Source: Plantactinospora sp. BC1
GTDB lineage: Bacteria; Actinomycetota; Actinomycetes; Mycobacteriales; Micromonosporaceae
NCBI RefSeq assembly: GCF_003030345.1
Contig: NZ_CP028158.1
Location: 6,572,001 to 6,636,000 of the forward strand
DNA length: 64,000 nucleotides
Reading direction: 5' to 3'
Part shown: in pieces, positions 37,544 through 59,024 of the stretch
How positions within the stretch are numbered: the first letter of the stretch is position 1
Layout of the letters: each line of letters starts with the position of its first letter
The notes under the pieces: model-generated
Database searches by the model: none
What the model was told of the DNA's origin: nothing
Seen by the model: only the letters and a program-made list of their open reading frames with translations
Program-made: the position numbers and the translations under genes

Positions 37544-38650
37544 ATGACTGGGCAGCAAGACCTGATTCCATCCGCGAAACCAGTTATCGGAGAAGCTGAG
37601 ATCGAGGCCGCCGTACGGGTGCTCCGCAGCGGCCGGGTGGTCCAGGGGCCGGAGGTGGCCGCGTTCGAGGAGGAGTTCTCCGAGCTGGTCGCCGGACGGC
37701 ACTGTGTCGCAGTCAACTCGGGCACCTCCGCCCTGCAACTGACCCTGATGGCGCTGGGGATCGGCCCCGGCGACGAGGTCGTGGTGCCGTCGTTCTCCTT
37801 CGCGGCGAGCGCGAACGCGGTCCGCCTGGTCGGCGCCGAGCCGGTCTTCGCCGACATCGAGGCCGGCAGCTTCTGCCTGGACCCGGCCGCCGTCGAGGCC
37901 GCGATCACCCCGCGCACCGTGGCGATCATGCCGGTGCACCTCTACGGCCACCCCGCCGCGATGGACCGGCTGGTGCCGATCGCGCAGCGGCACAACCTGG
38001 CCGTCGTGGAGGACGCCGCCCAGGCGCACGCCGCGGCCCTGAACGGGCAGCCGGTCGGCAGCTTCGGCACCGCCGGGTGCTTCAGCTTCTACCCCACCAA
38101 GAACATGCACTCGCTCGAGGGCGGCATGATCACCACCGCCGACGCCGAGCTGGCCCGGACGCTGCGGCTGCTGCGCAACCAGGGCATGGAGCAGCGGTAC
38201 GCGAACGAGATCGTCGGGGCCAACATGCGGCTCACCGACGTGGCGGCGGCGATCGGCCGGGTGCAGCTCAAGCAGCTCCCGGAGTGGACCGAGCAGCGGC
38301 GGTCGAACGCCAAGTTCCTCGACTCCCGGATCACCGCCGCGGTCACCCCGCCGGTGGCCGACGCGGCCCGGCACGTCTACCACCAGTACACGATCCGGGT
38401 CACCGGGGACCGGGACGCCGCCCAGCAGAAGCTGCTGGACCGTGGCGTCGGTAACGCCGTGTACTATCCGACTCCGATCCACCGGTTGAAGCCGTATCTC
38501 GGCAAGGACGGCCAGCCGGGTCCGTGGACCCTGCCGGAGACCGAGCGCGCCGCCCGCGAGGTGGTCTCGCTGCCGATCCACCCGTCGCTGAGCGCGACCG
38601 ACCTGGAGCGGATCGCCGACGCCGTGAACAGCCTGGAGGGCTCACAGTGA
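37544..38650 (+). CDS. DegT/DnrJ/EryC1 sugar aminotransferase (WbpE-like)
   Basis: PLP-dependent nucleotide-sugar aminotransferase (368 aa). The phosphate-binding NSGTSALQ, the Asp motif VVEDAAQAH and the Schiff-base lysine in FYPTKNM (Lys186) are intact, with SLEGGMI following. It is directly coupled to a Gfo/Idh/MocA dehydrogenase, the combination that makes 3-amino sugars in the WbpB/WbpE pathway (UDP-GlcNAcA to UDP-GlcNAc3NA). AGGAGG lies six bases before ATG 37544; the ATG at 37538 is inside the spacer. The stop overlaps the next start (GTGA). Confidence 0.9.
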   Translation: MTGQQDLIPSAKPVIGEAEIEAAVRVLRSGRVVQGPEVAAFEEEFSELVAGRHCVAVNSGTSALQLTLMALGIGPGDEVVVPSFSFAASANAVRLVGAEPVFADIEAGSFCLDPAAVEAAITPRTVAIMPVHLYGHPAAMDRLVPIAQRHNLAVVEDAAQAHAAALNGQPVGSFGTAGCFSFYPTKNMHSLEGGMITTADAELARTLRLLRNQGMEQRYANEIVGANMRLTDVAAAIGRVQLKQLPEWTEQRRSNAKFLDSRITAAVTPPVADAARHVYHQYTIRVTGDRDAAQQKLLDRGVGNAVYYPTPIHRLKPYLGKDGQPGPWTLPETERAAREVVSLPIHPSLSATDLERIADAVNSLEGSQ

Positions 38651-39693
38651 GTGTCGTCAGCGGCCAGGGGCGTACCCTGCGCGCCGGCCTGATCGGGCTG
38701 GGCGCGATGGGGCGCAACCACGCCCGGGTGCTGTCCAACCTGGACGGTGTGGAGCTGGTCGGCGTCGCCGACCCGGCCGGCGACTCGACCGGCACGGTCC
38801 GGGCGCCCGTGGTGGCGACCCTGGCCGAGCTGATCGCGATGAAGCTCGACTACGCGGTGGTGGCCTGCCCGACCGCGCTGCACGAGCAGGTCGGTCTGGA
38901 ACTCGCGGCCAACGGGATCAGCGCGCTGATCGAGAAGCCGCTCGCCCAGTCCGTCGAGACCGCGCAGCGGCTGGTGGCGGCCTTCGAGGCGGCCGGGCTG
39001 GTCGCCGGGGTCGGGCACATCGAGCGGTACAACCCGGCGTTGCAGAACCTGCGCAGCCGGCTGGAAGCGGGCGAGCTGGGCGAGGTCTTCCAGGTCGTCA
39101 CCCGCCGGCAGGGGCCGTTCCCGCACCGGATCGCCGACGTCGGCGTGGTGATGGACCTGGCCACCCACGACATCGACCTGACGAGCTGGGTGACCGGCCA
39201 GGAATACACCTCGGTCTCGGCCCGCACGGTCTCCCGCAGCGGCCGGCTGCACGAGGACATGGTGGCCGCGGTCGGCCAGCTCGCCGACGGCACGATGGTC
39301 AACCACCTGGTGAACTGGCTGAGCCCGCTGAAGGAGCGGTCGACGGTGATCACCGGCGACCGGGGGTGCTTCGTCGCCGACACCCTCACCGCGGACCTCA
39401 CCTTCTATGCCAACGCCGCGATCGACACCGAGTGGGAGGCGCTGCGCGCGTTCCGTGGGGTGGCCGAGGGCGACATGGTGCGGTACGCCATCCCGAAGCG
39501 CGAGCCGCTGCTCGTCGAGCACGAGCGGTTCCGTGACGCGGTGGAGGGCAAGGAGAGCGACATCGTGACGCTGCGCCAGGGCCTGCGTACGGTCCAGGTG
39601 GCGGCGGCGGTGCTCCAGTCCGCCACCGACGGCAGCACGGTGTCGGTGGCACCGGGCGACCGGACCGTCGACGACCTCTCCACGACCGGCTGA
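38647..39693 (+). CDS. Gfo/Idh/MocA sugar-nucleotide dehydrogenase (WbpB-like)
   Basis: 348 aa. NAD-binding motif GLIGLGAMGRNHARVL at the N-terminus, the family motif EKPLAQ (Lys-Pro), and the catalytic-domain His/Asp segment LATHDIDL. It would oxidise C3 of a UDP-N-acetylhexosaminuronic acid for the coupled aminotransferase; this function is inferred from pairing with DegT, NAD-sugar dehydrogenase and WbpD-type genes in the same locus. GTG 38647 overlaps the upstream TGA by four bases. Confidence 0.88.
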   Translation: MSVVSGQGRTLRAGLIGLGAMGRNHARVLSNLDGVELVGVADPAGDSTGTVRAPVVATLAELIAMKLDYAVVACPTALHEQVGLELAANGISALIEKPLAQSVETAQRLVAAFEAAGLVAGVGHIERYNPALQNLRSRLEAGELGEVFQVVTRRQGPFPHRIADVGVVMDLATHDIDLTSWVTGQEYTSVSARTVSRSGRLHEDMVAAVGQLADGTMVNHLVNWLSPLKERSTVITGDRGCFVADTLTADLTFYANAAIDTEWEALRAFRGVAEGDMVRYAIPKREPLLVEHERFRDAVEGKESDIVTLRQGLRTVQVAAAVLQSATDGSTVSVAPGDRTVDDLSTTG

Positions 39694-39813
39694 TTCCGCG
39701 CGCGGCCCGGTGCCGCGCGCGGTTTCCGCGAAAGACACCCGGGATCCGGTGGTGTTCGCACAGGCCCGCCACAGTCGGGCAAGAGTCAGCTCGTCTTATC
39801 TGGAGGATCGCGC

Positions 39814-42420
39814 ATGACACCGCCCGCTCGCCGACCGCGACTGGCAGTGATCGTCGGAAACGGCATCACCGGGGACTCCCGGGTACAGAAAACCGCCATC
39901 TCGGCGGCGCGGGCCGGCTGGGAGGTGCTGCTGATCGGCGCCGGGCGGGGACGCGCCGTCAAGTCGACCATGGGCGCGGTCCAGGTCGTCCGGGTCGGCG
40001 TCGCCGCGCACATGCGGGCGAAGCAGAAGGGGCACAAGCTCCGCCGGATCGTCACCCAGTTCGGGATCGCCGACAAGGAGGCGCTGGCGCGTACCCGGGC
40101 GGCCAACCAGACCTGGGTGCGGCAGACCACCGCCCGGATCGGCCGGATGCGGTCCACCGAGGGCCGGTCGGCGGCGGCGAACGCGATCGTCGTACCGGCC
40201 AGCCGGGCGCTGGGCGCACTGGTCCGGGCCCGCCGGCTCACCCACAAGCTGCGGGTCCGGGCCTTCCAGTGGGAACAGCGCTACCAGGCCGCGCCGACCG
40301 GGCAGTGGGCCAAGGACTGGCCGTACCTGCTCGACCTCGACCTCGCGTTCGGGCCGGCGATCGAGGAGTTCAAGCCGGACGTCATCCACGCCAACGACAT
40401 CACGATGATCGGCACGGCGGCGCAGAGCGTGGCCCGGATGCGCAACCGGGGGGAGAAGGTCCGGTGGCTCTACGACGCGCACGAGTACGTGCGCGGCGTG
40501 GACTGGCCCGACCCGTTGCAGGCCAGCGCCTTCAACGCGCTGGAGAAGGAGTTCATCGGCTTCGCCGATGCGGTGGTGACGGTCTCCCCGGAGATCGCCG
40601 AGCTGCTGCGCAAGGACTACAAGCTCAAGAAGACCCCGCTGGTGGTCCGGAACGTGCCGATCCGGGAGACGGTGAACACCGGCCGGGAGACCTATTCGGT
40701 ACGCCGGGCCTGCGGCCTGGAGCCGGACGTGCCGCTGCTGGTCTACTCCGGCTGGCTCGCCGCCGAGCGGGGGCTCGGGGTGGCCGTCGACGCCCTGCCG
40801 GAGCTGCCCGAGTTCCACCTCGCGATCGTCTCCGGCCGGACCAGCCCGGACCTGACGATGCTGCTGGAGAAGGCCGACAAGCTGGCTGTGCGGGACCGGA
40901 TCCACGTGGTGCCGTACGTGCCGCAGCACGCCGTACCCGACTATCTCTCCTCGGCGGACCTCGGCCTGATCTGCTCCAAGCGGACGCTGAACTACGAGAT
41001 CTCGCTGCCGACCAAGCTGGCGGAATACCTGCACGGCGGGCTGCCGGTGGTGGTCAGCGACGTGAAGACGCTCAGCGCGTACGTCCGGAAGCACAGGGTC
41101 GGCGAGGTCTTCCGCTCCGACGACGCGGCGAGTTTCGTGGCGACGGTGACGCACGCGATGGCGAACCGGAAGCAGCTGGCCGACGCGATCACCGAGGAGA
41201 TCCTCACCGACCTCTCCTGGGAGACGCAGAGCGCCGGCCTGATGCGGCTCTACTCGGAGATCTCCGGGATCACCCCGCCGAACCCGCGTCCCGAGGTGCG
41301 CTGGTCGCTGACCGAGCAGCCGGTGCCGGTCGCCGGCCCGGCCACCGAGCCGGGACCGCTGCCCCGGTGGCGTCCGCTGGACAACACCAGGGTCCGGCTG
41401 GGCCTCGGCCCGGCCAACTACGCCGGCCAGCTCGCCACCTTCGCCCAGGCGATCTGCCGGAGCAACCCGGAGGTCTCGGCCGAGGTCGTGATGGTGAAGA
41501 CCTCGCCGACCCTGCTCTATCCGGCGGACGTCTACGTCGACCAGGCCCGGCTGCCCGACCTGGACTGCCAGCTCGAACAGGTGCAGCGGGCGATCGGCCG
41601 CTACACCCACCTGGTGGCGGACGCCTTCCTGCCGTTCTTCGGGCACCTGAACGGCAACAACATCGAGGGTGACCTGCCGGCGCTGCAACGGGCCAAGATC
41701 AAGGTCGCGCTGCTCGGCCACGGCAGCGAGGTACGCCACCCCAGGCGGCACCTGGCCCGGCACGAGTACTCGCTGTTCCGGGACGCCCCGGACGGCTACG
41801 TCGAGCGGTACACGGCGCGGGCCGAGCGCAACCGGAAGGTGGCCGAGGAGACCGGGCTGCCGCTCTTCGTCACCACCCCGGACCTGCTCGACGACCTGCC
41901 CTGGGCGACCTGGGCGCCGCTGGTGGTGGACCTGGACGCCTGGGCCACCGACCAGCCGGTGATGGAGCGGCCCCGGCCGGTGGTGCTGCACGGCCCGTCG
42001 AAGCGCTGGACCAAGGGGACCGACCGGATCCTGCCGGTGCTGAACGACCTGCACGAGCGGGGCGCGATCGAGCTGAAACTGGCCGAGAACGTCGCCTGGA
42101 AGGACATGACCGAGCTGGTCAAGACCAGCGACATCGTGATCGACCAGTTCACCACCGGCAGCTACGGGACGTTCGCCGTCGAGGCGATGGCCGCCGGCAA
42201 GCCGGTGGTCGCCTACCTGAGCGACAGCGTGGCGGCGACGGTCGGCAGCACCCCGCCGATCGTGAACGCCACCCCGGCCAACCTCCGCCAGGTGCTGGAG
42301 TCCCTCCTGGACGACCGGGCCGGCACCGCCCGCCGGGGCGCCGAGTCGGTGGCCTACGTCCGGGAGTACCACGACGGTCGGCGTACCGCGGCGGCGTTCG
42401 CGAGCTTCCTAGCCAGCTGA
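39814..42420 (+). CDS. Double GT-B glycosyltransferase
   Basis: 868 aa, about twice the size of a usual GT4 enzyme. Residues 1-490 form one GT-B unit: an opening IVGNGITGDSRVQKTAISAA motif shared with two paralogues further on, DVIHANDI, YDAHEY, and the donor-site region KLAEYLHGGLPVVVSD. After a Pro-rich linker (about 485-520) residues 520-868 form a second, different GT-B unit with GPANYAGQLA at its start, ending FAVEAMAAGKPVVAYLSD. Each unit has a plausible donor-binding Glu region, so two sugars may be added in sequence. GGAGG precedes ATG 39814. Confidence 0.85.
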   Translation: MTPPARRPRLAVIVGNGITGDSRVQKTAISAARAGWEVLLIGAGRGRAVKSTMGAVQVVRVGVAAHMRAKQKGHKLRRIVTQFGIADKEALARTRAANQTWVRQTTARIGRMRSTEGRSAAANAIVVPASRALGALVRARRLTHKLRVRAFQWEQRYQAAPTGQWAKDWPYLLDLDLAFGPAIEEFKPDVIHANDITMIGTAAQSVARMRNRGEKVRWLYDAHEYVRGVDWPDPLQASAFNALEKEFIGFADAVVTVSPEIAELLRKDYKLKKTPLVVRNVPIRETVNTGRETYSVRRACGLEPDVPLLVYSGWLAAERGLGVAVDALPELPEFHLAIVSGRTSPDLTMLLEKADKLAVRDRIHVVPYVPQHAVPDYLSSADLGLICSKRTLNYEISLPTKLAEYLHGGLPVVVSDVKTLSAYVRKHRVGEVFRSDDAASFVATVTHAMANRKQLADAITEEILTDLSWETQSAGLMRLYSEISGITPPNPRPEVRWSLTEQPVPVAGPATEPGPLPRWRPLDNTRVRLGLGPANYAGQLATFAQAICRSNPEVSAEVVMVKTSPTLLYPADVYVDQARLPDLDCQLEQVQRAIGRYTHLVADAFLPFFGHLNGNNIEGDLPALQRAKIKVALLGHGSEVRHPRRHLARHEYSLFRDAPDGYVERYTARAERNRKVAEETGLPLFVTTPDLLDDLPWATWAPLVVDLDAWATDQPVMERPRPVVLHGPSKRWTKGTDRILPVLNDLHERGAIELKLAENVAWKDMTELVKTSDIVIDQFTTGSYGTFAVEAMAAGKPVVAYLSDSVAATVGSTPPIVNATPANLRQVLESLLDDRAGTARRGAESVAYVREYHDGRRTAAAFASFLAS

Positions 42421-42426
42421 CGTGCG

Positions 42427-42475
42427 AGGAACGGCCCCTTCTCGTCCCGAAGAGGGATGAGAAGGGGCCGTTCCT
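42427..42475. terminator. 22-bp near-perfect hairpin between convergent operons
   Basis: 42427-42448 pairs with 42454-42475, 21 Watson-Crick pairs and one G-U, with a 5-base loop. It lies between the ends of the double glycosyltransferase gene and the convergent 185-aa gene and should act in both directions. Confidence 0.88.
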
Positions 42476-42487
42476 TACCCCACGTCT

Positions 42488-43045
42488 TTACAGTACGGCA
42501 CCGACGTCGAAGCAGAGCGTGGGTGCGACGTTGCGCGCCGTCAGGTCGGCCAGGATGGTGGCGGCGGCCGGCATCGAGCCCGGATCGCTCACCACCAGGA
42601 CGTCGAACCGACCCGGCTGGAGCACGTACCGGTCCAGCAGCCGCAGCCGGGGGTCGCCCTTCTTCGCGTAGAGCGGCTGGAAGAGCCGCCGGTAGACCGG
42701 CAGGCCGACCCGGCGGTGCACCCGGTCCGCGAACGCCCGCTGGTACGCCCGGTTGGCCTTCTTCGACCTGCCGGCCAGCGGCCCCCGGCCGACCGCCTTG
42801 AACAGGAAGCCCGGTCCCCGGACCAGCACCATCTGCTCCACGGCGAGCGGTGCCAGCCGGAGTTCGAGCTTGGTCAGGTCCACCACCCGGAGCTGCTTGG
42901 GCAGCTTCTCCCGGCGCCACTTGCCGATGTCGTTGACCACCAGGGTGGCGCTGCCACCGGCGGCGATCACCCGCTCGACGTCGGCCAGCACGGCGAGCCG
43001 GCGGGAGCCCTCCAGGGCCAGGATCAACACCTGCGGTTCAGCCAT
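42488..43045 (-). CDS. Small glycan-locus protein, stand-alone form of a GT-associated domain
   Basis: 185 aa, no known family that I recognise. The N-terminus (MAEPQVLILALEGSRRLAVL) parallels that of the 739-aa protein at 56173 (MAYSNVLYLALGTERVRAAR). Its C-terminal half (ANRAYQRAF ... RFDVLVVSDPGSMPAA) resembles the extreme C-terminus of the same protein. It thus looks like one flavodoxin-like half of a split glycosyltransferase. It overlaps the upstream glycosyltransferase gene by eight bases (ATGGCTGA), so the two are translated together and may form a complex. ATG 43057 is an alternative start. Confidence 0.7.
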   Translation of the reverse strand: MAEPQVLILALEGSRRLAVLADVERVIAAGGSATLVVNDIGKWRREKLPKQLRVVDLTKLELRLAPLAVEQMVLVRGPGFLFKAVGRGPLAGRSKKANRAYQRAFADRVHRRVGLPVYRRLFQPLYAKKGDPRLRLLDRYVLQPGRFDVLVVSDPGSMPAAATILADLTARNVAPTLCFDVGAVL

Positions 43046-44327
43046 CGGTGCGGGCATCCCATCCGGTCGTGGTCGACGTCCCCGGGCCCGGCGTGCCGAA
43101 CCACGCCTCGCGGTGGCTGCGGGCGACGGCGGGATAGCTGTACCTGTCGGCGAGTTCCCGACGGGCGCGGTCCAGGTCCAGGCCGTGCGGGAAGCGGTCC
43201 CGCAACCGGCGATAGCCGTCCACGATGGACTCCGCGTTCTCCTCCACCGGGATCAGCTCGCCGGCCGCCTCCTCCAGCCCGGCCAGCGTCTCCTCCGGTC
43301 CGCCACAGCGGGTGACCAGCACCGGCGTCCCGGCGGCGATCGCCTCGACGATCGTCATGCCGAAGGTCTCGAACCGGCTCGGGTGCACCAGCAGGTCGTG
43401 CTCGCGCATCATCCGCAGCGCCTCGTCCGGCGCCACGGCACCGGCGAAGGTGACCGCCTCGGCGACGCCGAGTTCGCCGGCCCGCCGGGTCAGGTCCTTG
43501 CGCAGCTGTCCCTCGCCGACGAAGGTGAGGGACAGCGCCGGCTCCTCGGCCCGGCACTTGGCGAACGCCTCGAGCAGCCAGGAGACGCCCTTGCGGGGGA
43601 GCAGGCCGCCGACGAAGAGCCAGCGGTGCAGCGCGCTGACCGGGGTGGCCCGGGGCTGGTCGAACGAGATCGGGTTCGGGATGAAGCCGATCCGGTCGGC
43701 GTGGTGCGGAAACGCCTCGACCAGCGGGTTGCGTACGGCGTCGCCGACGGCGAAGAAGCCGGCGCAGCGGTGCAGCAGGTCGTCGTACATCGCGCGCGCC
43801 TCGGGCTGTTCCAGCACCAGGTTGAGGAAGGTGGCGTGCTCGGTCACGAAGACCCGCGCGTCCGGCCGGGCGTTCTGCAACGCCGCCCAGCCGCCGGGCA
43901 GCCCGACGTGGGCGTGCACCACCGGGGCGTCGATCGGGGCGTTGCCGAGCGCCGCCCGGAGCGCCTCGGTGTGGTTGCGGGAGATCGTCGCGTAGTCCGG
44001 GGTCACCGGCATCACCACCGGCAGGTGCACCAGGTCGGCGCCGCCGACGGTGGGGCGGCGGTGCACGCCCTGCGGCAGCAGCGCCCGGAACGCCTCGTCG
44101 ATCGCGGCGGTGGTCTCCGCCGGCAGCCGGTGCCCCCACTCGTCGGTGTGGTAGACGGTGACCTGCTGGTATTCCGGTGCGGTCGCCTCCACCATCGCCT
44201 GCACGAAGGCGCCCCGAAACGGGCGCTGGCCGGTCGGATACCACGGGGTGACGACGGCGACGTCGCTGGCGGGATTCGTCTGCACCTGCTTCGGTCCTCG
44301 GTTCGCCGGGCGGTCTCGGTCAGGCAT
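43038..44327 (-). CDS. GT4-family glycosyltransferase
   Basis: 429 aa, GT-B fold. It opens with DVAVVTPWYPTGQRPFRGAF and contains HAHVGLPGG, TEHATFL, WLFVGGLLPRKG at the start of the donor domain, and the EX7E region HPSRFETFGMTIVEAIAAGTPVL. The same opening (LAVVTPWYPS) occurs inside the 739-aa protein at 56173. The start overlaps the epimerase gene by eight bases. Membership of a WecB-type operon suggests transfer of a ManNAc-type or diacetamido sugar (inference). Confidence 0.9.
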   Translation of the reverse strand: MPDRDRPANRGPKQVQTNPASDVAVVTPWYPTGQRPFRGAFVQAMVEATAPEYQQVTVYHTDEWGHRLPAETTAAIDEAFRALLPQGVHRRPTVGGADLVHLPVVMPVTPDYATISRNHTEALRAALGNAPIDAPVVHAHVGLPGGWAALQNARPDARVFVTEHATFLNLVLEQPEARAMYDDLLHRCAGFFAVGDAVRNPLVEAFPHHADRIGFIPNPISFDQPRATPVSALHRWLFVGGLLPRKGVSWLLEAFAKCRAEEPALSLTFVGEGQLRKDLTRRAGELGVAEAVTFAGAVAPDEALRMMREHDLLVHPSRFETFGMTIVEAIAAGTPVLVTRCGGPEETLAGLEEAAGELIPVEENAESIVDGYRRLRDRFPHGLDLDRARRELADRYSYPAVARSHREAWFGTPGPGTSTTTGWDARTDG

Positions 44328-45399: not shown

Positions 45400-45529
45400 T
45401 GCGGATTACTCCCGGCGTCGATCGACGGTGGAATGCGGGGCATCGTGCTGACTCGTACGCTTCCGGCCGCGCACGCTTCGCGCGACAAGGCGGGAATGGT
45501 ACAGCAGCCCCCGGTGCCCACACGATACG

Positions 45530-46369: not shown

Positions 46370-46384
46370 CGGTGCGTTTCCTCC

Positions 46385-47026
46385 TCAGCCGGTCCGGGTG
46401 AAGACGTGGAACCCGTTGGGGTTGCCGCGGAACGCGTACGGGCGCCACCCCTCGAATCTCAGGCCGCACTCCCGGGCCAGCCGGACGTACCGGTCCCGGC
46501 CCCGGACGACCTGGTAGTTCCCGTACCTCCGGTCGCCGTCGCCGCCCCAGTCGGCGAGGACGAGCCGGCCCCGGAGCCGGACCAGCGAGGCGAGGTTGCG
46601 TACCGAGCGCTCCCACTCGGCGTCGTCGAGTACGTGGAAGAGCACGTCGACCGAGAGCACCACGTCGTACGGCCACGGGCTGCGCCAGCCCGACAGTGTG
46701 GACCGGAAGTACCGGGCACCGCCGCCGCGCTCCCGGCAGTACGCCAGCGCGCTCTCGCTGGCGTCGATCCCGTCGACCTGGTGGCCGAACCGGGCCAGCT
46801 CCCGGCTGAACCAGCCCTTGCCGCAGCCGGCGTCGAGCAGGAACAGCGGCGCGACCGGGTCGGACTGGTGGCCGATGATGTCCAGCAGGAGGCTGAGGCG
46901 CAGGATGTAGAACATCCGGTTCGTCGGCTCGTCGAAGGACATGTCGCCGCCGGAGCGCAGGTCGCCCTCCCGCCGGTGCCGGTCGTTCCAGTAGGCGTCG
47001 TTCTCCTCGGCGGAGAGCAGCTCCAC
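46385..47026 (-). CDS. Class I SAM-dependent methyltransferase
   Basis: 213 aa. SAM motif I is LFLLDAGCGKGWFSRELARFG, motif II is DGIDASESAL, and the later strand is DVVLSVDVLFHVLDD. The C-terminal end NPNGFHVFTRTG resembles glycan and polyketide O-methyltransferases. GTG 47026 has only a poorly spaced purine stretch ahead of it. Being inside the glycan locus it may methylate a sugar or the end of the chain. Confidence 0.87.
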   Translation of the reverse strand: MELLSAEENDAYWNDRHRREGDLRSGGDMSFDEPTNRMFYILRLSLLLDIIGHQSDPVAPLFLLDAGCGKGWFSRELARFGHQVDGIDASESALAYCRERGGGARYFRSTLSGWRSPWPYDVVLSVDVLFHVLDDAEWERSVRNLASLVRLRGRLVLADWGGDGDRRYGNYQVVRGRDRYVRLARECGLRFEGWRPYAFRGNPNGFHVFTRTG

Positions 47027-47145: not shown

Positions 47146-48321
47146 TCAAACGATGGCGCGTAGGTACGGCACCCGGGCGGCGCCGAGCGAGGCCGCGAAC
47201 GAGACGACCAGGATCACCAGGTACGCGCCGAGCATCAGCGGCAGCGAGCGTCCCTCGGCCACCCCGGGAACGGTCTGCCGGAGCAGCTCCAGCACCAGCA
47301 GGTGGACCAGGAACACCCCGAAGGAGGCGTCGGAGAGCCGGACGAGGAGCCGGCCGGACCGCTCCGACGGGGTGACCCGGGCACCGATCCCGACGGCGAG
47401 CAGGAAGAGGCAGATCGCCGCGGCCGCCACCGTGCCGCCGAGGTAGCCGACCGGCAGGAGCGTCTGGAGCCAGCGGTGTTCCGGTGAGACGCCCCACTGC
47501 CAGACCGCCTCGGCCATCAGCAGCACCGCGAGCACCCCGGCCAGCAGCAGGCCGCGCCGGCCGAGCACCACCCGGTGCAGCGCCCAGCCGGCCAGGAAGT
47601 ATCCGACGTACGGCCACCACATGGTCAGCGCGCCGAGGTGGATCGGGCGGGGCGCGCCGATCATCGCGGCCATCCCGGAGGAGGCGAAGGTGACCAGGGT
47701 GAAGGCCAGGGCCACCCCGGCGAGGATCATCGCCCGGCGCCGCCCGCCGTCTTTCAGGAACGCCGCCAGCACCGGGGCGACCAGGTAGAGCCCGGCGATC
47801 AGCCAGAGGAAGTAGAGCGCGGTGAAGACCCTGGCGTCCATCAGGTTGCGGGCCAGCAGGGTCGGGGTCAGCTCCTCGCCCCGCCAGAGCATGCGTACCC
47901 CGACCAGGTAGACGAGGTGCCAGACGACCAGGGCGGGGACGATCCGGACGAAGCGCTTGCGGTAGAAGGCGACCGGCCCGGCGGCGTGTGCCCGGGGCGC
48001 CAGGGTGAGCGCGCCGCTGATCATGACGAAGACGGGTACGGTCCAGGTCGCACCGAGGTCGATGGCGGCGGCGGTCCACCAGCTCAGGGTGTGCCGCAGG
48101 TCGTCGTGTCCGAGTACCAGCCCGATCACGTGGATCGCGACCACCCCGCAGACGGCGAGCACCCGGAGCGCGTCCAGCCCGTACTGCCGGACCGGCCGGC
48201 CGCCGCCCGCTGCGACGCCAGCGGTGACCGGGGCGTCGGCGGGGGGTGTCGGGGTGGATGCGCCGGTCTCCGTCACGGAGGCGCCCTGGGTCGGCAGTTC
48301 CGGTTGGGCCGGCATCCTCAT
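47146..48321 (-). CDS. Acyltransferase-3 family membrane protein (OafA-like)
   Basis: 391 aa with about ten membrane helices. It begins with a Pro/Thr-rich tail and then GLDALRVLAVCGVVAIHVIG, the catalytic His of the acyltransferase-3 family, followed by PVFVMISGALTL and FYRKRFVRIVPALVVW with its conserved Arg. Such enzymes O-acetylate or succinylate cell-surface glycans. ATG 48321 lies seven bases after a TAGTAT hexamer (48329-48334 on the other strand), so the mRNA may be leaderless. Divergent from the 549-aa glycosyltransferase. Confidence 0.9.
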   Translation of the reverse strand: MRMPAQPELPTQGASVTETGASTPTPPADAPVTAGVAAGGGRPVRQYGLDALRVLAVCGVVAIHVIGLVLGHDDLRHTLSWWTAAAIDLGATWTVPVFVMISGALTLAPRAHAAGPVAFYRKRFVRIVPALVVWHLVYLVGVRMLWRGEELTPTLLARNLMDARVFTALYFLWLIAGLYLVAPVLAAFLKDGGRRRAMILAGVALAFTLVTFASSGMAAMIGAPRPIHLGALTMWWPYVGYFLAGWALHRVVLGRRGLLLAGVLAVLLMAEAVWQWGVSPEHRWLQTLLPVGYLGGTVAAAAICLFLLAVGIGARVTPSERSGRLLVRLSDASFGVFLVHLLVLELLRQTVPGVAEGRSLPLMLGAYLVILVVSFAASLGAARVPYLRAIV

Positions 48322-48400: not shown

Positions 48401-48439
48401 TCGCGTCCTCGGGCCCCTTGGAAGGCGGGAAGGCCAAAG

Positions 48440-50089: not shown

Positions 50090-50204
50090 CCCGAGCGGCC
50101 CGCACCGGCGCCACCTGCGGGATCACCCCTCCGGCCGGTTGCCGTCGCGGTGCCGACGATGATCGATACGGGTCGACGGTCACGATCGGCAACCATGGCC
50201 GGGA

Positions 50205-50218
50205 TTGCCGTACACTCG
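50205..50218 (+). promoter_or_regulatory. Promoter element shared by two paralogous GT genes, copy 2
   Basis: Exact second copy of TTGCCGTACACTCG, with TACACT at 50211-50216. It lies 50 bases before the ATG of the second paralogue, so this gene is likely transcribed from its own start as well as by read-through. Confidence 0.55.
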
Positions 50219-50267
50219 CCGGAGTCCTCTGGAAAGCCCCGACCGGAAGGGCAGCGAAGACACAGTC

Positions 50268-51902: not shown

Positions 51903-51918
51903 GGACGGCGGTGGTCTG

Positions 51919-53490
51919 ATGGGTACCCCCGACGTCAGCGTGGTGGTGGCGGTCTACAACACCATGCCCTACCTCACGAAGTGCCTGAACTCCCTGCTCC
52001 GGCAGAGCATCGGCCGGGACCGGATGGAGATCGTCGCGGTGGACGACGGCTCCACCGACGGCAGCGGCCGGGAACTCGACCGCTTCGCCAAGCTCCATCC
52101 GGAGACGGTGAAGGTGGTCCACCAGGCGAACTCGGGTGGCCCGGCCGCGCCGAGCAACCGGGGTCTGGAGCTGGCCACGGGTCGCTACGTCTTCTTCATC
52201 GGCGCCGACGACTACCTCGGCGACGAGGCGCTGGAGCGGCTGGTGGCCGCCGCCGACGAGTACGGCTCGGACGTGGTGCTCGGCAAGACGGTCGGGGTCA
52301 ACAGCCGCAACATCCACCAGGCGGTCTTCGCCCGCAACGAGACCGACCTCGACCTCTTCGACTCGGCGCTGCCCTGGGCGCTGTCGAACACCAAGCTCTT
52401 CCGGCGCGAGCTGATCGAGCGGCACGGGCTGCGCTATCCGGAGGACATGCCGGTCGGCAGCGACCAGCCGTTCACCCTGGAGGCGTGCTACCGGGCGAAG
52501 CGGATCTCCGTACTCGCCGACTACCGCTTCTACCACGCCGTACGCCGGCTCAACGCGCACAACATCACCTACCGCTCCCGGCACGAGGAGCGGCTGCGCT
52601 GCGCCGAGCAGTTGGTGGAGTTCGTGGCCCGGCTGATCGAGCCGGGCAAGCAGCGGGACGCGGTGCTGATCCGGCACTTCGCCTGGGAGGTCGCCCGGCT
52701 GCTGGAGGACGACTTCCTCGGGCTCGACCGGGCGGTGCAGGAGCGGCTGGTGGCCGGCATCCGTACGCTGGCGGACCGCTATCTCACCGACGACATCCGG
52801 GACCGGCTGGAGATCGAGGCGCGGCTGCGGATCTCCACCGCCCAGCGCGGCACCGTCGACGACCTGCTCGCGGTGATCCGGCAGGACGCCGAGGAGGGCG
52901 TACCGCCGACGATCGTCGACGGCGACCGCTGGTACGCCGGTTATCCCGGCTTCCGGGACGCCCGGCTGGAGATGCCGGACCGCTGGTTCGACGTCTCGGA
53001 CACCGCGGCCGACTGGCTCGCCCGGATGGACGCGGTCGACCTGGCCTGGGAGACCGGCCCGGACGGCAGCCGGGGCCTGACCGTCACCGCGCACACGCCG
53101 CGGCGCAACCTGGCCAGCCTCACCTCCGGCCCGATCGGGCTGGCCGCCGGTGACGTGGTCGGCAGCACCCTGGAGACCACCCGGGACGCCGACGGCACCA
53201 CGGTGAAGGCCCGGTTCCGGGTGGACCAGTTGCTCGCCGGGGTCGGGGTCGGCGGCACCCTCTGCACGGTCCGGACCCAGTTGACCGCGTTCGGCACCAC
53301 CGGTTCGAGCCCGCTGCGGATGCCGACCCGGCCCACCGCGCCCCGCATGGTCTTCCGGCGCGGGGTCCGGTTCTTCGTCATCACGCCCACCACGAGTCAC
53401 CGTGGGCAACTTGTGATCGCAATAGCACCTGTCACGCCCCGCCGGGTCATGGCCCAGCTACGGCGCAGGTTGCCCAAGGGAGGAAAGTAG
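51919..53490 (+). CDS. GT2 glycosyltransferase, TarS-like
   Basis: 523 aa. GT-A domain: VSVVVAVYNTMPYLTKCLNS, DDGSTDGS, NSGGPAAPSNRGLELATG and the DxD-type site IGADDYLG. It resembles Staphylococcus aureus TarS, which adds GlcNAc to ribitol-phosphate teichoic acid: the NSGGP...P.N block, the DVVLGKTVGVNSR segment and DQPFTLEACYRAKRISVLADY all correspond. The C-terminal ~200 residues form a beta-rich domain (about 330-500), which in TarS mediates oligomerisation. Together with the CDP-ribitol genes this favours a ribitol-phosphate polymer. The next gene starts five bases after the stop. Confidence 0.87.
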   Translation: MGTPDVSVVVAVYNTMPYLTKCLNSLLRQSIGRDRMEIVAVDDGSTDGSGRELDRFAKLHPETVKVVHQANSGGPAAPSNRGLELATGRYVFFIGADDYLGDEALERLVAAADEYGSDVVLGKTVGVNSRNIHQAVFARNETDLDLFDSALPWALSNTKLFRRELIERHGLRYPEDMPVGSDQPFTLEACYRAKRISVLADYRFYHAVRRLNAHNITYRSRHEERLRCAEQLVEFVARLIEPGKQRDAVLIRHFAWEVARLLEDDFLGLDRAVQERLVAGIRTLADRYLTDDIRDRLEIEARLRISTAQRGTVDDLLAVIRQDAEEGVPPTIVDGDRWYAGYPGFRDARLEMPDRWFDVSDTAADWLARMDAVDLAWETGPDGSRGLTVTAHTPRRNLASLTSGPIGLAAGDVVGSTLETTRDADGTTVKARFRVDQLLAGVGVGGTLCTVRTQLTAFGTTGSSPLRMPTRPTAPRMVFRRGVRFFVITPTTSHRGQLVIAIAPVTPRRVMAQLRRRLPKGGK

Positions 53491-53495
53491 AAGGC

Positions 53496-54779
53496 ATGAA
53501 AATCTGCGTTGTCGCTCTGGGGAAGATCGGCCTGCCGCTGGCCGTGCAGTTCGCCGACAAGGGACACACGGTGATCGGTGCCGACGTCTCCGAGCGGGTC
53601 GTGAAGCTCGTCAACGACGGCGCGGTGCCGTTCCCCGGCGAGGCCGACCTGGACGTCAAGCTCAAGGAGGCGGTGGCGGCCGGTCGGCTCTCCGCGACCA
53701 CCGACACCGCGTCGGCGGTCGCCGAGTCCGAGGCTGTGGTCGTGGTGGTGCCGCTCTTCGTCGACGCCGAGGGGACGCCGGACTTCGGCTGGATGGACGA
53801 CGCCACCCGGGCGATCGCGGCCGGGCTCAAGCCGGGCACCCTGGTCAGCTACGAGACCACCCTGCCGGTCGGCACCACCCGCAACCGCTGGGCGCCGATG
53901 CTGGAGCAGGGCTCGGGGCTCAAGGTCGGCACCGACTTCACCCTGGTCTTCAGCCCCGAGCGGGTGCTGACCGGCCGGGTCTTCGCCGACCTGCGCCGCT
54001 ACCCGAAGCTGGTCGGCGGGGTGGACGAGGCGTCCGCCAAGCGCGGCGTCGAGTTCTACGAGGCGGTACTCGACTTCGACGAGCGCCCCGACCTGTCCCG
54101 CCCGAACGGCGTCTGGGACCTCGGCTCGGCCGAGGCGTCCGAGCTGGCCAAGCTCGCCGAGACGACCTACCGGGACGTCAACATCGGGCTGGCGAACCAG
54201 TTCGCCCGGTTCGCCGACACCGTCGGCGTCGACGTGATCAAGGTCATCGAGGCCTGCAACACCCAGCCGTACAGCCACATCCACTCGCCGGGCATCGCCG
54301 TCGGCGGGCACTGCATCCCGGTCTACCCCCGGATGTACCTCTGGAACGACCCGTCCGCGACCGTCGTCCGGGCGGCCCGGGAGGCCAACGCCGGGATGCC
54401 GGACTACGCCGTCGAGCTGCTCGCCGCCGCCTGGGGCGACCTGACCGACGTCGAGGTGCTGGTGCTCGGTGCGGCGTACCGGGGCGGGGTCAAGGAGACG
54501 GCGTTCTCCGGGGTCTTCCCGACCGTCGAGGCGCTGCGCGCCCGGGGCGCCCGGCCGTACGTCTCCGACCCGATGTACACCGCCGAGGAGCTGACCGCGC
54601 TCGGGCTGCCCGCCTACCAGGGCGAGCGGGTCGAGGCCGTGGTGGTGCAGGCCGACCACGCCGAGTACCGCACCCTGGCCGAGACCGACCTGCCCGGCGT
54701 ACGGGTGGTCGTCGACGGCCGCCGGGTGACCGACCCGGCCCGCTGGCCGAACGTACGCCGGATCGTCATCGGCGGCTGA
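53496..54779 (+). CDS. UDP-sugar 6-dehydrogenase (WbpA/WecC-like)
   Basis: 427 aa NAD-dependent nucleotide-sugar dehydrogenase. NAD motif VVALGKIGLPLAVQFADKG at the N-terminus, ETTLPVGTTRN, the Lys/Asn segment ELAKLAETTYRDVNIGLAN, and the catalytic Cys273 in GGHCIPVYP. A C-terminal UDP-binding domain has LGAAYRGGVKETAFS. Sequence favours N-acetylhexosamine 6-dehydrogenases over UDP-glucose dehydrogenase, but this cannot be proved by eye. It would carry out the first step (UDP-GlcNAc to UDP-GlcNAcA) of the diacetamido-uronate route. GGGAGGAAAG precedes ATG 53496. Confidence 0.9.
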   Translation: MKICVVALGKIGLPLAVQFADKGHTVIGADVSERVVKLVNDGAVPFPGEADLDVKLKEAVAAGRLSATTDTASAVAESEAVVVVVPLFVDAEGTPDFGWMDDATRAIAAGLKPGTLVSYETTLPVGTTRNRWAPMLEQGSGLKVGTDFTLVFSPERVLTGRVFADLRRYPKLVGGVDEASAKRGVEFYEAVLDFDERPDLSRPNGVWDLGSAEASELAKLAETTYRDVNIGLANQFARFADTVGVDVIKVIEACNTQPYSHIHSPGIAVGGHCIPVYPRMYLWNDPSATVVRAAREANAGMPDYAVELLAAAWGDLTDVEVLVLGAAYRGGVKETAFSGVFPTVEALRARGARPYVSDPMYTAEELTALGLPAYQGERVEAVVVQADHAEYRTLAETDLPGVRVVVDGRRVTDPARWPNVRRIVIGG

Positions 54780-54832
54780 GACCGGTATCCGTCCCCGGCG
54801 TCCCCGCCGCTGTCCGACAGGAGTGACTCGCC

Positions 54833-56176
54833 ATCGCCACGCCGTCCGCCCGGGGACGTTCTCGGCCTCCCCGGGTCCTCTATCTGTCGTTCTACTTTCC
54901 GCCGAGCCGGGCCAGCGGGGTCTTCCGGGCCCGGGCCACCGCCAACCGGCTGGCCGAGGACGGTTGGGACGTGACCGTCTTCACCGCGCCCCGGGAGTTC
55001 TTCGCCGACCACCTCGGTGGGGCCAGCGACGAGACGCTGGAGGCGACCGTCGACCCGCGGGTGCGGGTCGAGCGGGTCAGGCTCGGCGTGCACCACTGGG
55101 AGACCGACGTCCGTAAGTTCGGCTTCTTCCGGGGGATGTTCCCGAACGTCAGCGAGCGGATCTACCAGGCCGGGCAGCAGAAGATCTTTCCCGAGCACTA
55201 CCTCGGCTGGCTGCCCGGCCTGCTCCGCACCGCGCTGAAGCGGCACCTGCGACGCCGCTACGACCTGGTGCTGGCCACCGGCAACCCGTTCGTCTCCTTC
55301 GTGGCGGCGTGGGCGCTGGGCCGGATGCTCCGGATCCCGTACGTCGTCGACTATCGGGACGCCTGGACCTTCAACCAGTTCACCGAGGAGCTGATCTTCC
55401 CCGAGGGCAGCACGATGATGCGCTGGGAGGCGCGGGTGCTGCGGCACGCGGCGGAGAGCGTCTTCGTCAACGACGGCATGCGGCAGTGGCACGCCGAGCG
55501 CTATCCGTTCGCCGCCGACCGGATGAAGGTGGTGCCGAACGGCTGGGAGCCGGAGATCCTCGGCCGGGCGACCTTCCGGGCGCCGGATCCGGAGCAGCCG
55601 CTGCGCTTCGGCTATCTGGGTACGGTCACCAACCACATGCCGCTGGACGTGCTCTTCGCCGGTTGGCGGCTGGCCAAGGCGCATCCGCTGCTCGCCACCG
55701 CCACCCTTGAGGTGCACGGGCACCTCGGCTTCTTCCCGCACAACATCGCGCCGCTTAAGGCGCGGATCGAGGAGGAGTCGGATCTGGGTGTGCGCTACAG
55801 CGGCCCGTTCGGCAAGACCGAGGCCGCCGGGGTGTACGGCCGGACCGACGTGCTGGTCTTCTGCGTACCGGGTGCGAGGTACGTGACCTCCGGCAAGGTC
55901 TTCGAGTACATGGCGACCGGCAAGCCGGTGGTCTCGGTGCACATTCCTGAGATCGCCGCCACCGAGGTGCTCTCCGGCTATCCACTGTGGTTCGCCGGCA
56001 AGCGGCTGGACGCCGAGAGTGTGGCCCAGTCGCTGATCGCCGCCGCCAAGGCCGCCCGGGATCTCGACGCCGCGACGCACGAGGCGGCGGTCCGGCACGC
56101 GGAGACGTACACCCGGGCGGCGACGCTCGGGCCGTGGGAGGCCCGGCTGCGCCGGCTCGCGGAAGGGGCCCGGTGA
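54833..56176 (+). CDS. GT4-family glycosyltransferase, apparent ATC start
   Basis: 447 aa from the proposed start. N-terminal GT-B motif RVLYLSFYFPPSRASGVFRA, then VVDYRDAWTF, FRFGYLGTVT-like donor-domain entry (LRFGYLGTVTNHMP) and KVFEYMATGKPVVSV with the EX7E-type Glu. The frame has a TGA nine bases before ATC 54833 and no ATG, GTG or TTG until GTG 54971. That GTG would remove 46 residues, including the whole first strand and the FPPSRASG loop. AGGAG (54819-54823) sits nine bases before the ATC. It follows the dehydrogenase gene and overlaps the next gene by four bases. Confidence 0.85.
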   Translation: MATPSARGRSRPPRVLYLSFYFPPSRASGVFRARATANRLAEDGWDVTVFTAPREFFADHLGGASDETLEATVDPRVRVERVRLGVHHWETDVRKFGFFRGMFPNVSERIYQAGQQKIFPEHYLGWLPGLLRTALKRHLRRRYDLVLATGNPFVSFVAAWALGRMLRIPYVVDYRDAWTFNQFTEELIFPEGSTMMRWEARVLRHAAESVFVNDGMRQWHAERYPFAADRMKVVPNGWEPEILGRATFRAPDPEQPLRFGYLGTVTNHMPLDVLFAGWRLAKAHPLLATATLEVHGHLGFFPHNIAPLKARIEEESDLGVRYSGPFGKTEAAGVYGRTDVLVFCVPGARYVTSGKVFEYMATGKPVVSVHIPEIAATEVLSGYPLWFAGKRLDAESVAQSLIAAAKAARDLDAATHEAAVRHAETYTRAATLGPWEARLRRLAEGAR

Positions 56177-58392: not shown

Positions 58393-58426
58393 TCGGGCGG
58401 AGCCGCCACCGGACCGGTATGCCCGG

Positions 58427-58476
58427 CGGGCGGGATACCACCGGGTCGTCACGATGACCCGGTGGTATCCCGCCCG
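58427..58476. terminator. 23-bp hairpin between convergent genes
   Basis: 58427-58449 pairs with 58454-58476 (22 Watson-Crick pairs, one G-U) around a 4-base loop. It ends the long rightward glycosyltransferase operon and faces the end of the acetyltransferase gene six bases further on. Confidence 0.88.
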
Positions 58477-58481
58477 GAGGA

Positions 58482-59024
58482 CTACAGGTCCGGCGGCGGG
58501 TTCTCCCGGTCCCGGGAGACGACCTGGCCCTTGACGTCCACCCAGCCGAGCGGGCGGGCCGGGTTGCCGGCCACCAGCTGGTGCGGCTTGACGTCCTTGG
58601 TCACCACCGAGCCGGCGGCGATCATCGCGTACTCGCCGATCTCGATCCCGCAGATGATGGTGGCGTTGGCACCGATCGAGGCGCCCCTGCGGACCACGGT
58701 CGGGGTGATCTGCCAGTCCGGGTTCTGGGCCCGTGGCCGGAGGTCGTTGGTGAACACCGCGCAGGGGCCGACGAAGACCTCGTCCTCGATCGTCACGCCC
58801 TGGTACACGGAGACGTTGTTCTGGATCTTGACCAGGTCGCCGACCACGACGTTCGCGTCCACGTAGACGTTCCGGCCGATCACACAGTTCGCGCCCACCC
58901 GGGCGGTGGAGCGGACGTGGGCGAGATGCCAGACCTTGCTGCCGTCGCCGATCCGCGCGCCCTCGTCGACCTCGGCCGATGGGTGCACGAAGACCGTGTC
59001 GGGGAGGGCGGGAGGCTCGTTCAT
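58482..59024 (-). CDS. Hexapeptide N-acetyltransferase (WbpD/WlbB-like)
   Basis: 180 aa left-handed beta-helix acyltransferase. Repeats such as ARIGDGSKVWHLAHV, CVIGRNVYVDANVVVGD and VKIQNNVSVYQGV follow the WbpD/WlbB pattern closely, including the conserved VFTND segment and the catalytic-loop GASIGANATIICG. It would acetylate the 3-amino group of UDP-GlcNAc3NA-uronate, the fourth step in the diacetamido-uronate route. ATG 59024 is used; GTG 59036 is possible and neither has a strong ribosome binding site. Confidence 0.9.
   Translation of the reverse strand: MNEPPALPDTVFVHPSAEVDEGARIGDGSKVWHLAHVRSTARVGANCVIGRNVYVDANVVVGDLVKIQNNVSVYQGVTIEDEVFVGPCAVFTNDLRPRAQNPDWQITPTVVRRGASIGANATIICGIEIGEYAMIAAGSVVTKDVKPHQLVAGNPARPLGWVDVKGQVVSRDRENPPPDL

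What the first reader, a model, noticed from the sequence alone, without database searches (positions are those of the whole stretch)
37544..59024. All five enzyme types for a UDP-2,3-diacetamido-uronic acid are present but scattered
Pseudomonas and Bordetella make UDP-ManNAc3NAcA with WbpA, WbpB, WbpE, WbpD and WbpI. This locus has a 6-dehydrogenase (53496), a Gfo/Idh 3-dehydrogenase coupled to a DegT aminotransferase (38647 and 37544), a WbpD-type hexapeptide acetyltransferase (58482) and an epimerase with the WbpI-type GSGSHGxQTG motif (44320). They lie in four separate transcription units among glycosyltransferases. A diacetamido-uronic acid polymer in a Gram-positive actinomycete wall would be uncommon.
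Basis: partly seen in the sequence, partly recalled or inferred. Interest (0 to 1): 0.75.

Follow-up and report, generated by a model that had tools for sequence, protein, structure and literature searches.

The report
Acidic diamino-sugar genes for cell wall
This actinomycete carries, inside a wall teichoic acid gene region, a five-enzyme set that probably makes a rare acidic sugar with two acetamido groups; a like gene set was recently described in Streptomyces, but three of the five enzymes are of other lineages than the textbook Pseudomonas ones and may work in a different order.

Summary
In detail: all five enzyme types lie at the stated places. The epimerase is WbpI-like (50% identical to the T. 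thermophilus enzyme) and the acetyltransferase is nearest 3mqg. The 6-dehydrogenase is not a UDP-glucose dehydrogenase. One refutation condition is partly touched: the aminotransferase lies outside the starred clade of WbpE and QdtB and shares an EGG motif with 4-amino enzymes, though it does not group with WecE or ArnB. Linkage is strong: all 11 of 81 genomes with the epimerase hold the other three core genes on one contig; class-wide, 3- and 6-dehydrogenase co-occur in 70 genomes (76 and 71 carriers). Other genomes hold all five contiguously. The sugar is not new to Gram-positives: S. griseus has a ManNAc3NAcA chain on ribitol teichoic acid with a matching gene set (utrA-J, Cell 2025). The window also has TarS-, TarIJ-, TagF- and TagGH-like genes, so it is a new member of that kind. 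New point: 6-dehydrogenase, 3-dehydrogenase and aminotransferase are not the WbpA/B/E lineages, and acetyltransferase, aminotransferase and 3-dehydrogenase occur together in a complete genome without any 6-dehydrogenase, suggesting that C3 amination precedes C6 oxidation. No chemistry was tested.

The parts
31332..33032 (-). TagF/TarL-like polyol-phosphate polymerase (Glyphos_transf)
   Evidence: PF04464 42.8 bits, cut-off 22.1
33085..34677 (-). TarIJ-like fusion, cytidylyltransferase plus SDR (CDP-ribitol supply)
   Evidence: PF01128 168.6 bits plus PF00106 112.1; 56-65% identical proteins near the same genes in four of eleven class loci
34866..35690 (-). ABC transporter ATPase, TagH-like
   Evidence: PF00005 67.7 bits
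35683..36579 (-). ABC-2 permease, TagG-like
   Evidence: PF01061 50.5 bits
37544..38650 (+). UtrA-like DegT sugar aminotransferase, inferred to act at C3
   Evidence: PF01041 407 bits; PDB hits 7b0d 317, 2oga 280, QdtB 252, WbpE 238, perosamine synthetase 235 bits; outside the WbpE/QdtB clade and outside WecE/ArnB; EGG motif
38647..39693 (+). UtrB-like Gfo/Idh sugar 3-dehydrogenase, nearest UDP-GlcNAc 3-dehydrogenase type
   Evidence: best NCBIfam model NF040723 212 bits, below its cut-off of 450; clade with enzymes of Chloroflexota cassettes
39847..42420 (+). GT4 glycosyltransferase, 857 aa
   Evidence: PF00534 81 bits, two stretches
43038..44285 (-). GT4 glycosyltransferase
   Evidence: PF00534 104 bits
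44320..45399 (-). UtrH/WbpI-like UDP-GlcNAc3NAcA 2-epimerase
   Evidence: 50% identical to the T. thermophilus enzyme, 336 bits; 4neq 238 and 1f6d 135 bits; W307 and Y96 equivalents present, A18 equivalent is Leu
47146..48321 (-). membrane acyltransferase, possible UtrI-like O-acetyltransferase
   Evidence: PF01757 109 bits
48440..50089 (+). GT4 glycosyltransferase
   Evidence: PF13692 55.8 bits
50268..51902 (+). GT4-like glycosyltransferase resembling the one before
   Evidence: translation; not scanned with Pfam; 59-64% identical proteins in class loci
51919..53490 (+). UtrC-like, TarS-like GT2 glycosyltransferase
   Evidence: PF00535 106 bits plus TarS_linker PF22181 41 bits; Asp182 in a GSDQPF stretch
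53496..54779 (+). UtrD-like UDP-HexNAc-type 6-dehydrogenase
   Evidence: TIGR03026 291.7 bits over cut-off 189.8; NF040825 256, AglM 131, TviB 99, all three below cut-off; own clade
54971..56176 (+). GT4-like glycosyltransferase
   Evidence: PF13579 48 bits
56173..58392 (+). GT4 glycosyltransferase, 739 aa
   Evidence: PF13692 47 bits
58482..59024 (-). UtrJ-like hexapeptide N-acetyltransferase (WlbB/WbpD type)
   Evidence: 3mqg (deposited as lipopolysaccharides biosynthesis acetyltransferase; its name WlbB is recalled) 167 bits, next 131

Best explanation
The window holds a Utr-type locus that makes UDP-ManNAc3NAcA (and its gluco precursor UDP-GlcNAc3NAcA) and builds an acidic teichuronic-like chain on ribitol wall teichoic acid. 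Inferred route: UDP-GlcNAc is oxidised at C3 (38647), aminated (37544), N-acetylated at C3 (58482), oxidised at C6 (53496) and epimerised at C2 (44320); the TarS-like GT2 (51919) puts the first sugar on ribitol phosphate, GT4 enzymes extend the chain, and TarIJ/TagF/TagGH-like genes supply and export the backbone. Shown here: presence, subfamily, linkage and co-occurrence. Inferred: every substrate, the position of amination, the order of steps, the repeat unit and the attachment.
For: Epimerase 336 bits to a 2-epimerase shown to act on UDP-GlcNAc3NAcA (PMC10622841). Acetyltransferase nearest 3mqg. Dehydrogenase outside the Ugd clade, 154 bits to E. coli WecC and 55.5 to Ugd. Contiguous cassettes of the same types: L114 and L102 (Chloroflexota), L210 (actinomycete G212). 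Co-occurrence 70 of 76 and 70 of 71. The eleven best class loci outside the family, of the 68 genomes with a UtrC-like match, hold aminotransferase, 3-dehydrogenase, GT2 and 6-dehydrogenase in one region at 70-79, 72-77, 49-61 and 74-83% identity, in line with the published utr locus, which also has TagF (SGR_4957) and TarIJ (SGR_4956) nearby. Order: NF040723 fit; a W[RK]G..GG..N..H loop in 18 of 19 rows of the WlbA and WbpB clades and in none of the 40 rows of the window clade; G463, 100% complete, has the trio of acetyltransferase, aminotransferase and 3-dehydrogenase but no 6-dehydrogenase over cut-off.
Against: No enzyme was assayed and no wall analysed. The aminotransferase lies outside the 36-row starred clade of WbpE, QdtB, 2oga and 7b0d and has EGG where these have DGG; named 4-amino enzymes ArnB and WecE have EGG. 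NCBIfam's three best models for it are 4-amino enzymes, all far below cut-off. The epimerase has Leu where the T. thermophilus enzyme has Ala18, and 4neq, deposited as UDP-GlcNAc 2-epimerase, scores 238 bits. Two of the 11 epimerase carriers, G032 and G037, have only 46-50% acetyltransferase homologues far away. None of the 21 proteins scanned of the 23 called between 31.3 and 61.9 kb is a utrE-type 4-epimerase, so the S. griseus repeat cannot simply be copied. Co-occurrence of 3- and 6-dehydrogenase is also what the P. aeruginosa order predicts, and the published authors propose that route.
Confidence: 0.75

Rival explanations
1. Same product, but in the textbook P. aeruginosa order: UDP-GlcNAc is first oxidised at C6, and the 3-dehydrogenase and aminotransferase act on the uronate.
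For: This is the order published for P. aeruginosa and assumed for S. griseus; 3- and 6-dehydrogenase genes co-occur in 70 of 76 and are adjacent in several loci.
Against: The 3-dehydrogenase is in neither the WlbA nor the WbpB clade and lacks their shared loop, though the role of that loop was not established and fused enzymes in WbpI-type clusters lack it too; the 6-dehydrogenase scores 99 bits on the TviB model where two WbpA-context enzymes tested score 545 and 569; the aminotransferase/3-dehydrogenase pair occurs with no 6-dehydrogenase (G463) or with UDP-glucose-type ones only (G028, G050).
Confidence: 0.35
2. The genes serve separate products: DegT/Gfo/acetyltransferase make UDP-GlcNAc3NAc, while the 6-dehydrogenase and epimerase make UDP-ManNAcA (WecB/WecC-like).
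For: The best equivalog for the 6-dehydrogenase is UDP-ManNAc dehydrogenase NF040825, 256 bits, below cut-off; DegT/Gfo/acetyltransferase trios stand alone in several genomes.
Against: The epimerase has Trp and Tyr in place of the Arg and His of E. coli WecB; five-gene cassettes in L114, L102 and L210; all 11 epimerase carriers have the other three core genes.
Confidence: 0.12
3. The aminotransferase works at C4 or in a deoxysugar pathway, so the product is not a 2,3-diacetamido sugar.
For: EGG motif shared with ArnB and WecE and absent from WbpE and QdtB; outside the WbpE/QdtB clade; perosamine synthetase scores 235 bits, close to WbpE's 238; ArnB and PseC models lead in NCBIfam, below cut-off.
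Against: It does not group with WecE or ArnB; aminotransferases with the same motif lie in the Chloroflexota cassettes beside WbpI-type epimerases; its fixed partner is a UDP-GlcNAc 3-dehydrogenase-like enzyme (18 of 19 carriers); no 4,6-dehydratase among the 21 proteins scanned; S. griseus, with a matching gene set, has a 2,3-diacetamido sugar by NMR.
Confidence: 0.07

Closest known systems
Streptomyces griseus utrA-J teichuronic/wall teichoic acid locus (PMC13274773)
   Same: Same enzyme classes: aminotransferase, oxidase, TarS-like GT2, 6-dehydrogenase, 2-epimerase, N-acetyltransferase, GT4-type enzymes, candidate O-acetyltransferase; TagF and TarIJ close by; GT2 and 6-dehydrogenase neighbours (utrC, utrD by letter).
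   Different: Genus not known here; the A-B pair is separated from the C-D pair by about 12 kb; no utrE-type 4-epimerase found in the locus; acetyltransferase only 45-50% like those of six class loci; several extra GT4 genes. S. griseus proteins themselves were not compared.
P. aeruginosa WbpA/B/E/D/I and T. thermophilus set (PMC10622841)
   Same: Same five enzyme types; epimerase and acetyltransferase are clear homologues.
   Different: 6-dehydrogenase, 3-dehydrogenase and aminotransferase are other lineages; probably a different order.
GnnA/GnnB UDP-GlcNAc3N synthesis for lipid A (recalled; one search gave listings only)
   Same: Gfo/DegT pair; loop like that of 7bvj, which I recall as GnnA but could not confirm; in G050 and G065 the pair is followed by an LpxA-like gene.
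   Different: Here coupled with an N-acetyltransferase, 6-dehydrogenase and epimerase; grouping with 7bvj itself is not supported.
Enterobacterial WecB/WecC UDP-ManNAcA pathway
   Same: Same two superfamilies.
   Different: Epimerase diagnostic residues and dehydrogenase clade differ.

Membership tests
UDP-GlcNAc3NAcA 2-epimerase (WbpI type) | Trp at T. thermophilus 307 in place of the Arg of UDP-GlcNAc 2-epimerases | tested here: met
   Trp in the window and all 22 UtrH-like rows (duplicates and the window's own gene included); 82 of 84 rows of WbpI loci; Arg in E. coli WecB (criterion from PMC10622841)
UDP-GlcNAc3NAcA 2-epimerase (WbpI type) | Tyr at 96 in place of His/Gln | tested here: met
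   Tyr in the window; 78 of 84 rows of WbpI loci; His in WecB
UDP-GlcNAc3NAcA 2-epimerase (WbpI type) | Ala at 18 in place of Leu/Met | tested here: not met
   Leu in the window and all 22 UtrH-like rows; Ala in 76 of 84 rows of WbpI loci
WbpE-type 3-aminotransferase | falls in the clade of WbpE and QdtB, with DGG after the PLP lysine | tested here: not met
   outside a 36-row clade with 100/100 support; EGG; so it is not filed as WbpE
4-aminotransferase (ArnB/WecE) | falls in the clade of ArnB and WecE | tested here: not met
   perosamine synthetase and PseC were not in the tree, and the deep forks there are weak
WbpB/WlbA 3-dehydrogenase | falls in the WlbA or WbpB clade and has their W[RK]G..GG..N..H loop | tested here: not met
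   so it is not filed as WbpB
UDP-GlcNAc 3-dehydrogenase (NF040723) | scores over the curated cut-off | tested here: not met
   212 bits, cut-off 450; best of all models all the same
WbpA/TviB UDP-GlcNAc 6-dehydrogenase | falls in the WbpA-context clade, high TviB score | tested here: not met
   own clade (quick tree); 99 bits vs 545 and 569 for two tested
UDP-glucose 6-dehydrogenase | falls with Ugd | tested here: not met
   55.5 bits to E. coli Ugd vs 154 to WecC
WlbB/WbpD acetyltransferase | nearest solved relative is 3mqg | tested here: met
   167 bits, next 131
Utr teichuronic/teichoic locus | core enzyme classes A, B, C, D, H, J with teichoic acid genes in one locus | tested here: met
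   by class, not by comparison with the S. griseus proteins
Utr teichuronic/teichoic locus | polymer with ManNAc3NAcA linked to ribitol phosphate | not testable with these tools
   needs NMR of the wall

The most novel reading that the evidence does not exclude
Actinomycetes make 2,3-diacetamido-uronic acids by their own route: a portable cassette (UtrB-like, UtrA-like, acetyltransferase) first makes UDP-GlcNAc3NAc from UDP-GlcNAc, and a separately evolved 6-dehydrogenase and an epimerase are added where an acidic manno sugar is wanted. The same cassette, without the neighbouring 6-dehydrogenase, is used in or beside flagellar genes (G028, G190) and, with an LpxA-like acyltransferase in place of the acetyltransferase, next to acyl-carrier genes (G050, G065).
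Probability: 0.6. Interest if true: 0.5.

Novelty: new member of a known kind. Interest (0 to 1): 0.4.

Why it matters
In S. griseus a teichuronic chain with this sugar is a receptor for antibacterial umbrella toxins, so knowing which other actinomycetes can make such chains, and how, bears on who can attack whom. If the order of steps is different, the pathway assigned by analogy with Pseudomonas is wrong for many actinomycetes, and the GlcNAc3NAc cassette becomes a predictor of other undescribed glycans (flagellar, acylated). The question can be settled with two or three purified enzymes.

Tried and rejected
Rejected: UDP-glucose dehydrogenase, WecB-type epimerase. Not excluded by sequence alone: a 4-amino role of the aminotransferase. 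The dehydrogenase tree is a quick one, with long branches and weak deep forks.

Matches under 300 aligned residues (6-dehydrogenase) or 280 (aminotransferase) and 3-dehydrogenase segments under 250 were left out; one long-branch row was dropped. PF03721 matches were classed by bit score only, except G028's two and G050's one (NCBIfam) and the few set against E. coli enzymes. G127 (86% complete) was not fetched or checked. TetR-like 36816-37379 and GT4-like 50268-51902 were not scanned with Pfam.
Full report
WHAT IS THERE. The window is G000:C1:6572001-6636000 of an 8.33 Mb single-contig genome without a name. Gene calling and family searches give, from 31.3 to 59.0 kb: a TagF-like polymerase, a TarIJ-like fusion, a TagGH-like transporter, a TetR-like gene (by eye), then aminotransferase (37544) and 3-dehydrogenase (38647), GT4 genes, epimerase (44320, minus), an acyltransferase (47146, minus), two similar GT4 genes, a TarS-like GT2 (51919), the 6-dehydrogenase (53496), two more GT4 genes and the hexapeptide acetyltransferase (58482, minus). 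All five enzymes of the finding are at the stated places.

EPIMERASE AND ACETYLTRANSFERASE. The epimerase's best solved relative is the T. thermophilus UDP-GlcNAc3NAcA 2-epimerase, 336 bits and 50% identity; 4neq, deposited as UDP-GlcNAc 2-epimerase, has 238 bits and 1f6d (E. coli WecB, recalled) 135. The paper on the T. thermophilus enzyme (PMC10622841, parts 1-4 of 6 read) names three substitutions that fit the bulkier substrate: Trp307, Tyr96, Ala18. The window has the first two and Leu for the third, as do all 22 UtrH-like rows, in which some genes, the window's own among them, are counted more than once. The acetyltransferase is nearest 3mqg, 167 bits, next 131.

AMINOTRANSFERASE. Sequence searches do not settle its position of attack: in the PDB, 7b0d 317, 2oga 280, QdtB 252, WbpE 238, perosamine synthetase 235 bits; in NCBIfam ArnB 261, PseC 259 and DesI 244 bits, all below cut-off. 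On a careful tree of 74 rows with six named references, the window's 12-row clade lies outside the starred 36-row clade (100/100) of WbpE, QdtB, 2oga and 7b0d, and apart from WecE and ArnB; the forks between are weak. After the PLP lysine it has EGG, as have ArnB, WecE, all 12 rows of its clade and the three Chloroflexota enzymes, where WbpE, QdtB, 2oga and 7b0d have DGG (66 of 75 rows could be scored). I infer C3 from the fixed 3-dehydrogenase partner, from the company of WbpI-type epimerases in cassettes and from the known sugar of S. griseus, not from the sequence.

THE TWO DEHYDROGENASES. On a quick tree of 53 rows the window's 6-dehydrogenase and its relatives form a clade apart from the WbpA-context enzymes, from WecC/Cap5O/4r16 and from Ugd; deep forks have 81-89. 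Two WbpA-context enzymes score 545 and 569 bits on the TviB model, the window's 99. On a careful tree of 74 rows the 3-dehydrogenase sits in a starred clade of 40 rows (96/96) with the Chloroflexota enzymes of L076, L102 and L114, apart from the WlbA and WbpB clades. 18 of the 19 rows of those two clades carry a W[RK]G..GG..N..H loop; the window clade has PFPxRIADVGVxxDLATHD or close variants (two rows begin SF, one PY); the partial 7bvj sequence has PFKPRSLDIDVIMDLMIHD. Against reading too much into this: the role of the loop is unknown to me, and seven further rows from WbpI-type clusters (L070, L080, L106, L109, L126, L128, L129) lack it as well. The best NCBIfam model is the archaeal UDP-GlcNAc 3-dehydrogenase, 212 bits, below cut-off. 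Of others tested, L114 has 325, L102 316, L156 267, a trio enzyme (L157) 195, a fusion (L126) 152, a WlbA-type one (L100) 86; a WbpB-type one (L081) has no match to E 1e-20. So the model favours the window clade but not sharply.

LINKAGE AND CO-OCCURRENCE. In 81 genomes (own included) orthologues were found in: aminotransferase 19, 3-dehydrogenase 18, 6-dehydrogenase 15, epimerase 11. All 11 epimerase carriers hold the other three on the same contig, within about 6-23 kb; nine of the 11 also have the acetyltransferase at 79% or more on that contig, in G003 27 kb from the 6-dehydrogenase; G032 and G037 have only 46-50% homologues far away. In G032 the four core genes lie within 6.3 kb, with one GT4 gene between. 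In a class sample of 394 genomes, 76 have the 3-dehydrogenase, 71 the 6-dehydrogenase, 70 both. Full cassettes: acetyltransferase, aminotransferase, 3-dehydrogenase, 6-dehydrogenase, epimerase in L114 and L102; acetyltransferase, epimerase, aminotransferase, 3-dehydrogenase, 6-dehydrogenase in L210. So the scattering in the window is a local arrangement.

THE KNOWN SYSTEM. In S. griseus, mutants resistant to umbrella toxins map most often to utrA-E; deletion of utrC, a TarS-like transferase, removes a chain of GalNAc and ManNAc3NAcA whose first residue, GlcNAc3NAcA, sits on ribitol phosphate; utrA/B, D, J and H are predicted to make UDP-ManNAc3NAcA as in P. aeruginosa (PMC13274773, sections 8 and 9 and passages). 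TagF and TarIJ are near utrC there. The eleven best class loci outside the family, of 68 genomes with a UtrC-like match, were fetched; nine are from the species-rich family f33, by size and number probably Streptomyces, not verified. All eleven have aminotransferase, 3-dehydrogenase, GT2 and 6-dehydrogenase in one region at 70-79, 72-77, 49-61 and 74-83% identity to the window; in five GT4 genes stand between, and in one (L192) the order of the last two differs; five of the eleven also have the epimerase (69-81%), six an acetyltransferase (45-50%), four TarIJ (56-65%). Asp182 of the window GT2 lies in a GSDQPF stretch and probably corresponds to Asp181 of UtrC (no alignment with UtrC made). 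The window is therefore a new member of this kind.

ORDER OF STEPS. Ten genomes have the 3-dehydrogenase without a close 6-dehydrogenase: four of 18 in the order sample (G028, G034, G050, G065) and six of 76 in the class sample (G127, G128, G190, G395, G418, G463). Against a simple reading, six of the ten (G034, G065, G128, G190, G395, G418) have other, more distant 6-dehydrogenases that might serve, and G127 (86% complete) was not checked. Three remain: G463 (100% complete, 4 contigs) has no family member over cut-off; G050's one and G028's two score best, below cut-off, on UDP-glucose dehydrogenase models, and such an enzyme might still accept UDP-GlcNAc. G463 has the trio of acetyltransferase, aminotransferase and 3-dehydrogenase; G028 has it among flagellar genes (FlhA, FliM); G190 has it beside genes that look like FlgL and FliW (by eye). 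G050 and G065 have the pair followed by LpxA-like (178 bits in G065), acyl carrier, FabG-like, AMP-ligase and LuxE-like genes. A pair that works where no 6-dehydrogenase exists most simply uses UDP-GlcNAc. I therefore favour C3 amination and acetylation before C6 oxidation (about 0.6), against the published analogy. The paper searches (listings seen) showed no statement of this; most subscription journals are not held.

VERDICT. Observation confirmed; interpretation probably right about the sugar, out of date about its rarity, not cleanly passed on the aminotransferase, and unproven, perhaps wrong, about the order of steps. New member of a known kind, with a testable twist.

Noticed in passing
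L153:5490-11834 and L152:3-6402: In two genomes of the same order (G065, G050) the aminotransferase/3-dehydrogenase pair is followed by LpxA-like, acyl carrier, FabG-like, AMP-ligase and LuxE-like genes: a possible acylated GlcNAc3N product.
   Followed up: partly
L063:9478-12151 and L203:5036-7704: Acetyltransferase-aminotransferase-3-dehydrogenase trio inside or beside flagellar genes, without the 6-dehydrogenase; suggests flagellin glycosylation with a GlcNAc3NAc-type sugar.
   Followed up: partly
window DegT 37544-38650; L114, L102, L076: Aminotransferases with the EGG motif of 4-amino enzymes stand beside WbpI-type epimerases in complete cassettes; either C3 amination evolved twice in this family or these cassettes make another sugar.
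   Followed up: partly
L080, L109, L126, L128, L129, L070: Single open frames of about 515-575 aa that match both the 3-dehydrogenase and the acetyltransferase, in WbpI-type clusters: natural fusions.
   Followed up: no
L157, L158, L159, L160: Trios with a different 3-dehydrogenase clade (30-34% identity) whose acetyltransferase is 64-74% identical to the window's, closer than those of the class loci around UtrC-like genes.
   Followed up: no
window coordinates 82704-104345 (L054-L056, outside the window): A second polysaccharide locus with aminotransferases, a Gfo/Idh gene and a second 2-epimerase that has the UDP-GlcNAc-type Arg.
   Followed up: partly
48440-51902 and 39847-42420: Three GT4 proteins share an N-terminal GDSRVQK stretch; two are neighbours.
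   Followed up: no
42488-43045 and 56173-58392: A 185-aa protein without a Pfam family looks, by eye, like the N- and C-terminal parts of the 739-aa GT4 protein.
   Followed up: no
41328-41420 and 52000-52099: ARAGORN tRNA calls on the minus strand lie inside glycosyltransferase genes; probably false.
   Followed up: no
G000:C1:4358922-4360511 (L196): A second UtrC-like GT2 (57% identity) elsewhere in the same genome.
   Followed up: no
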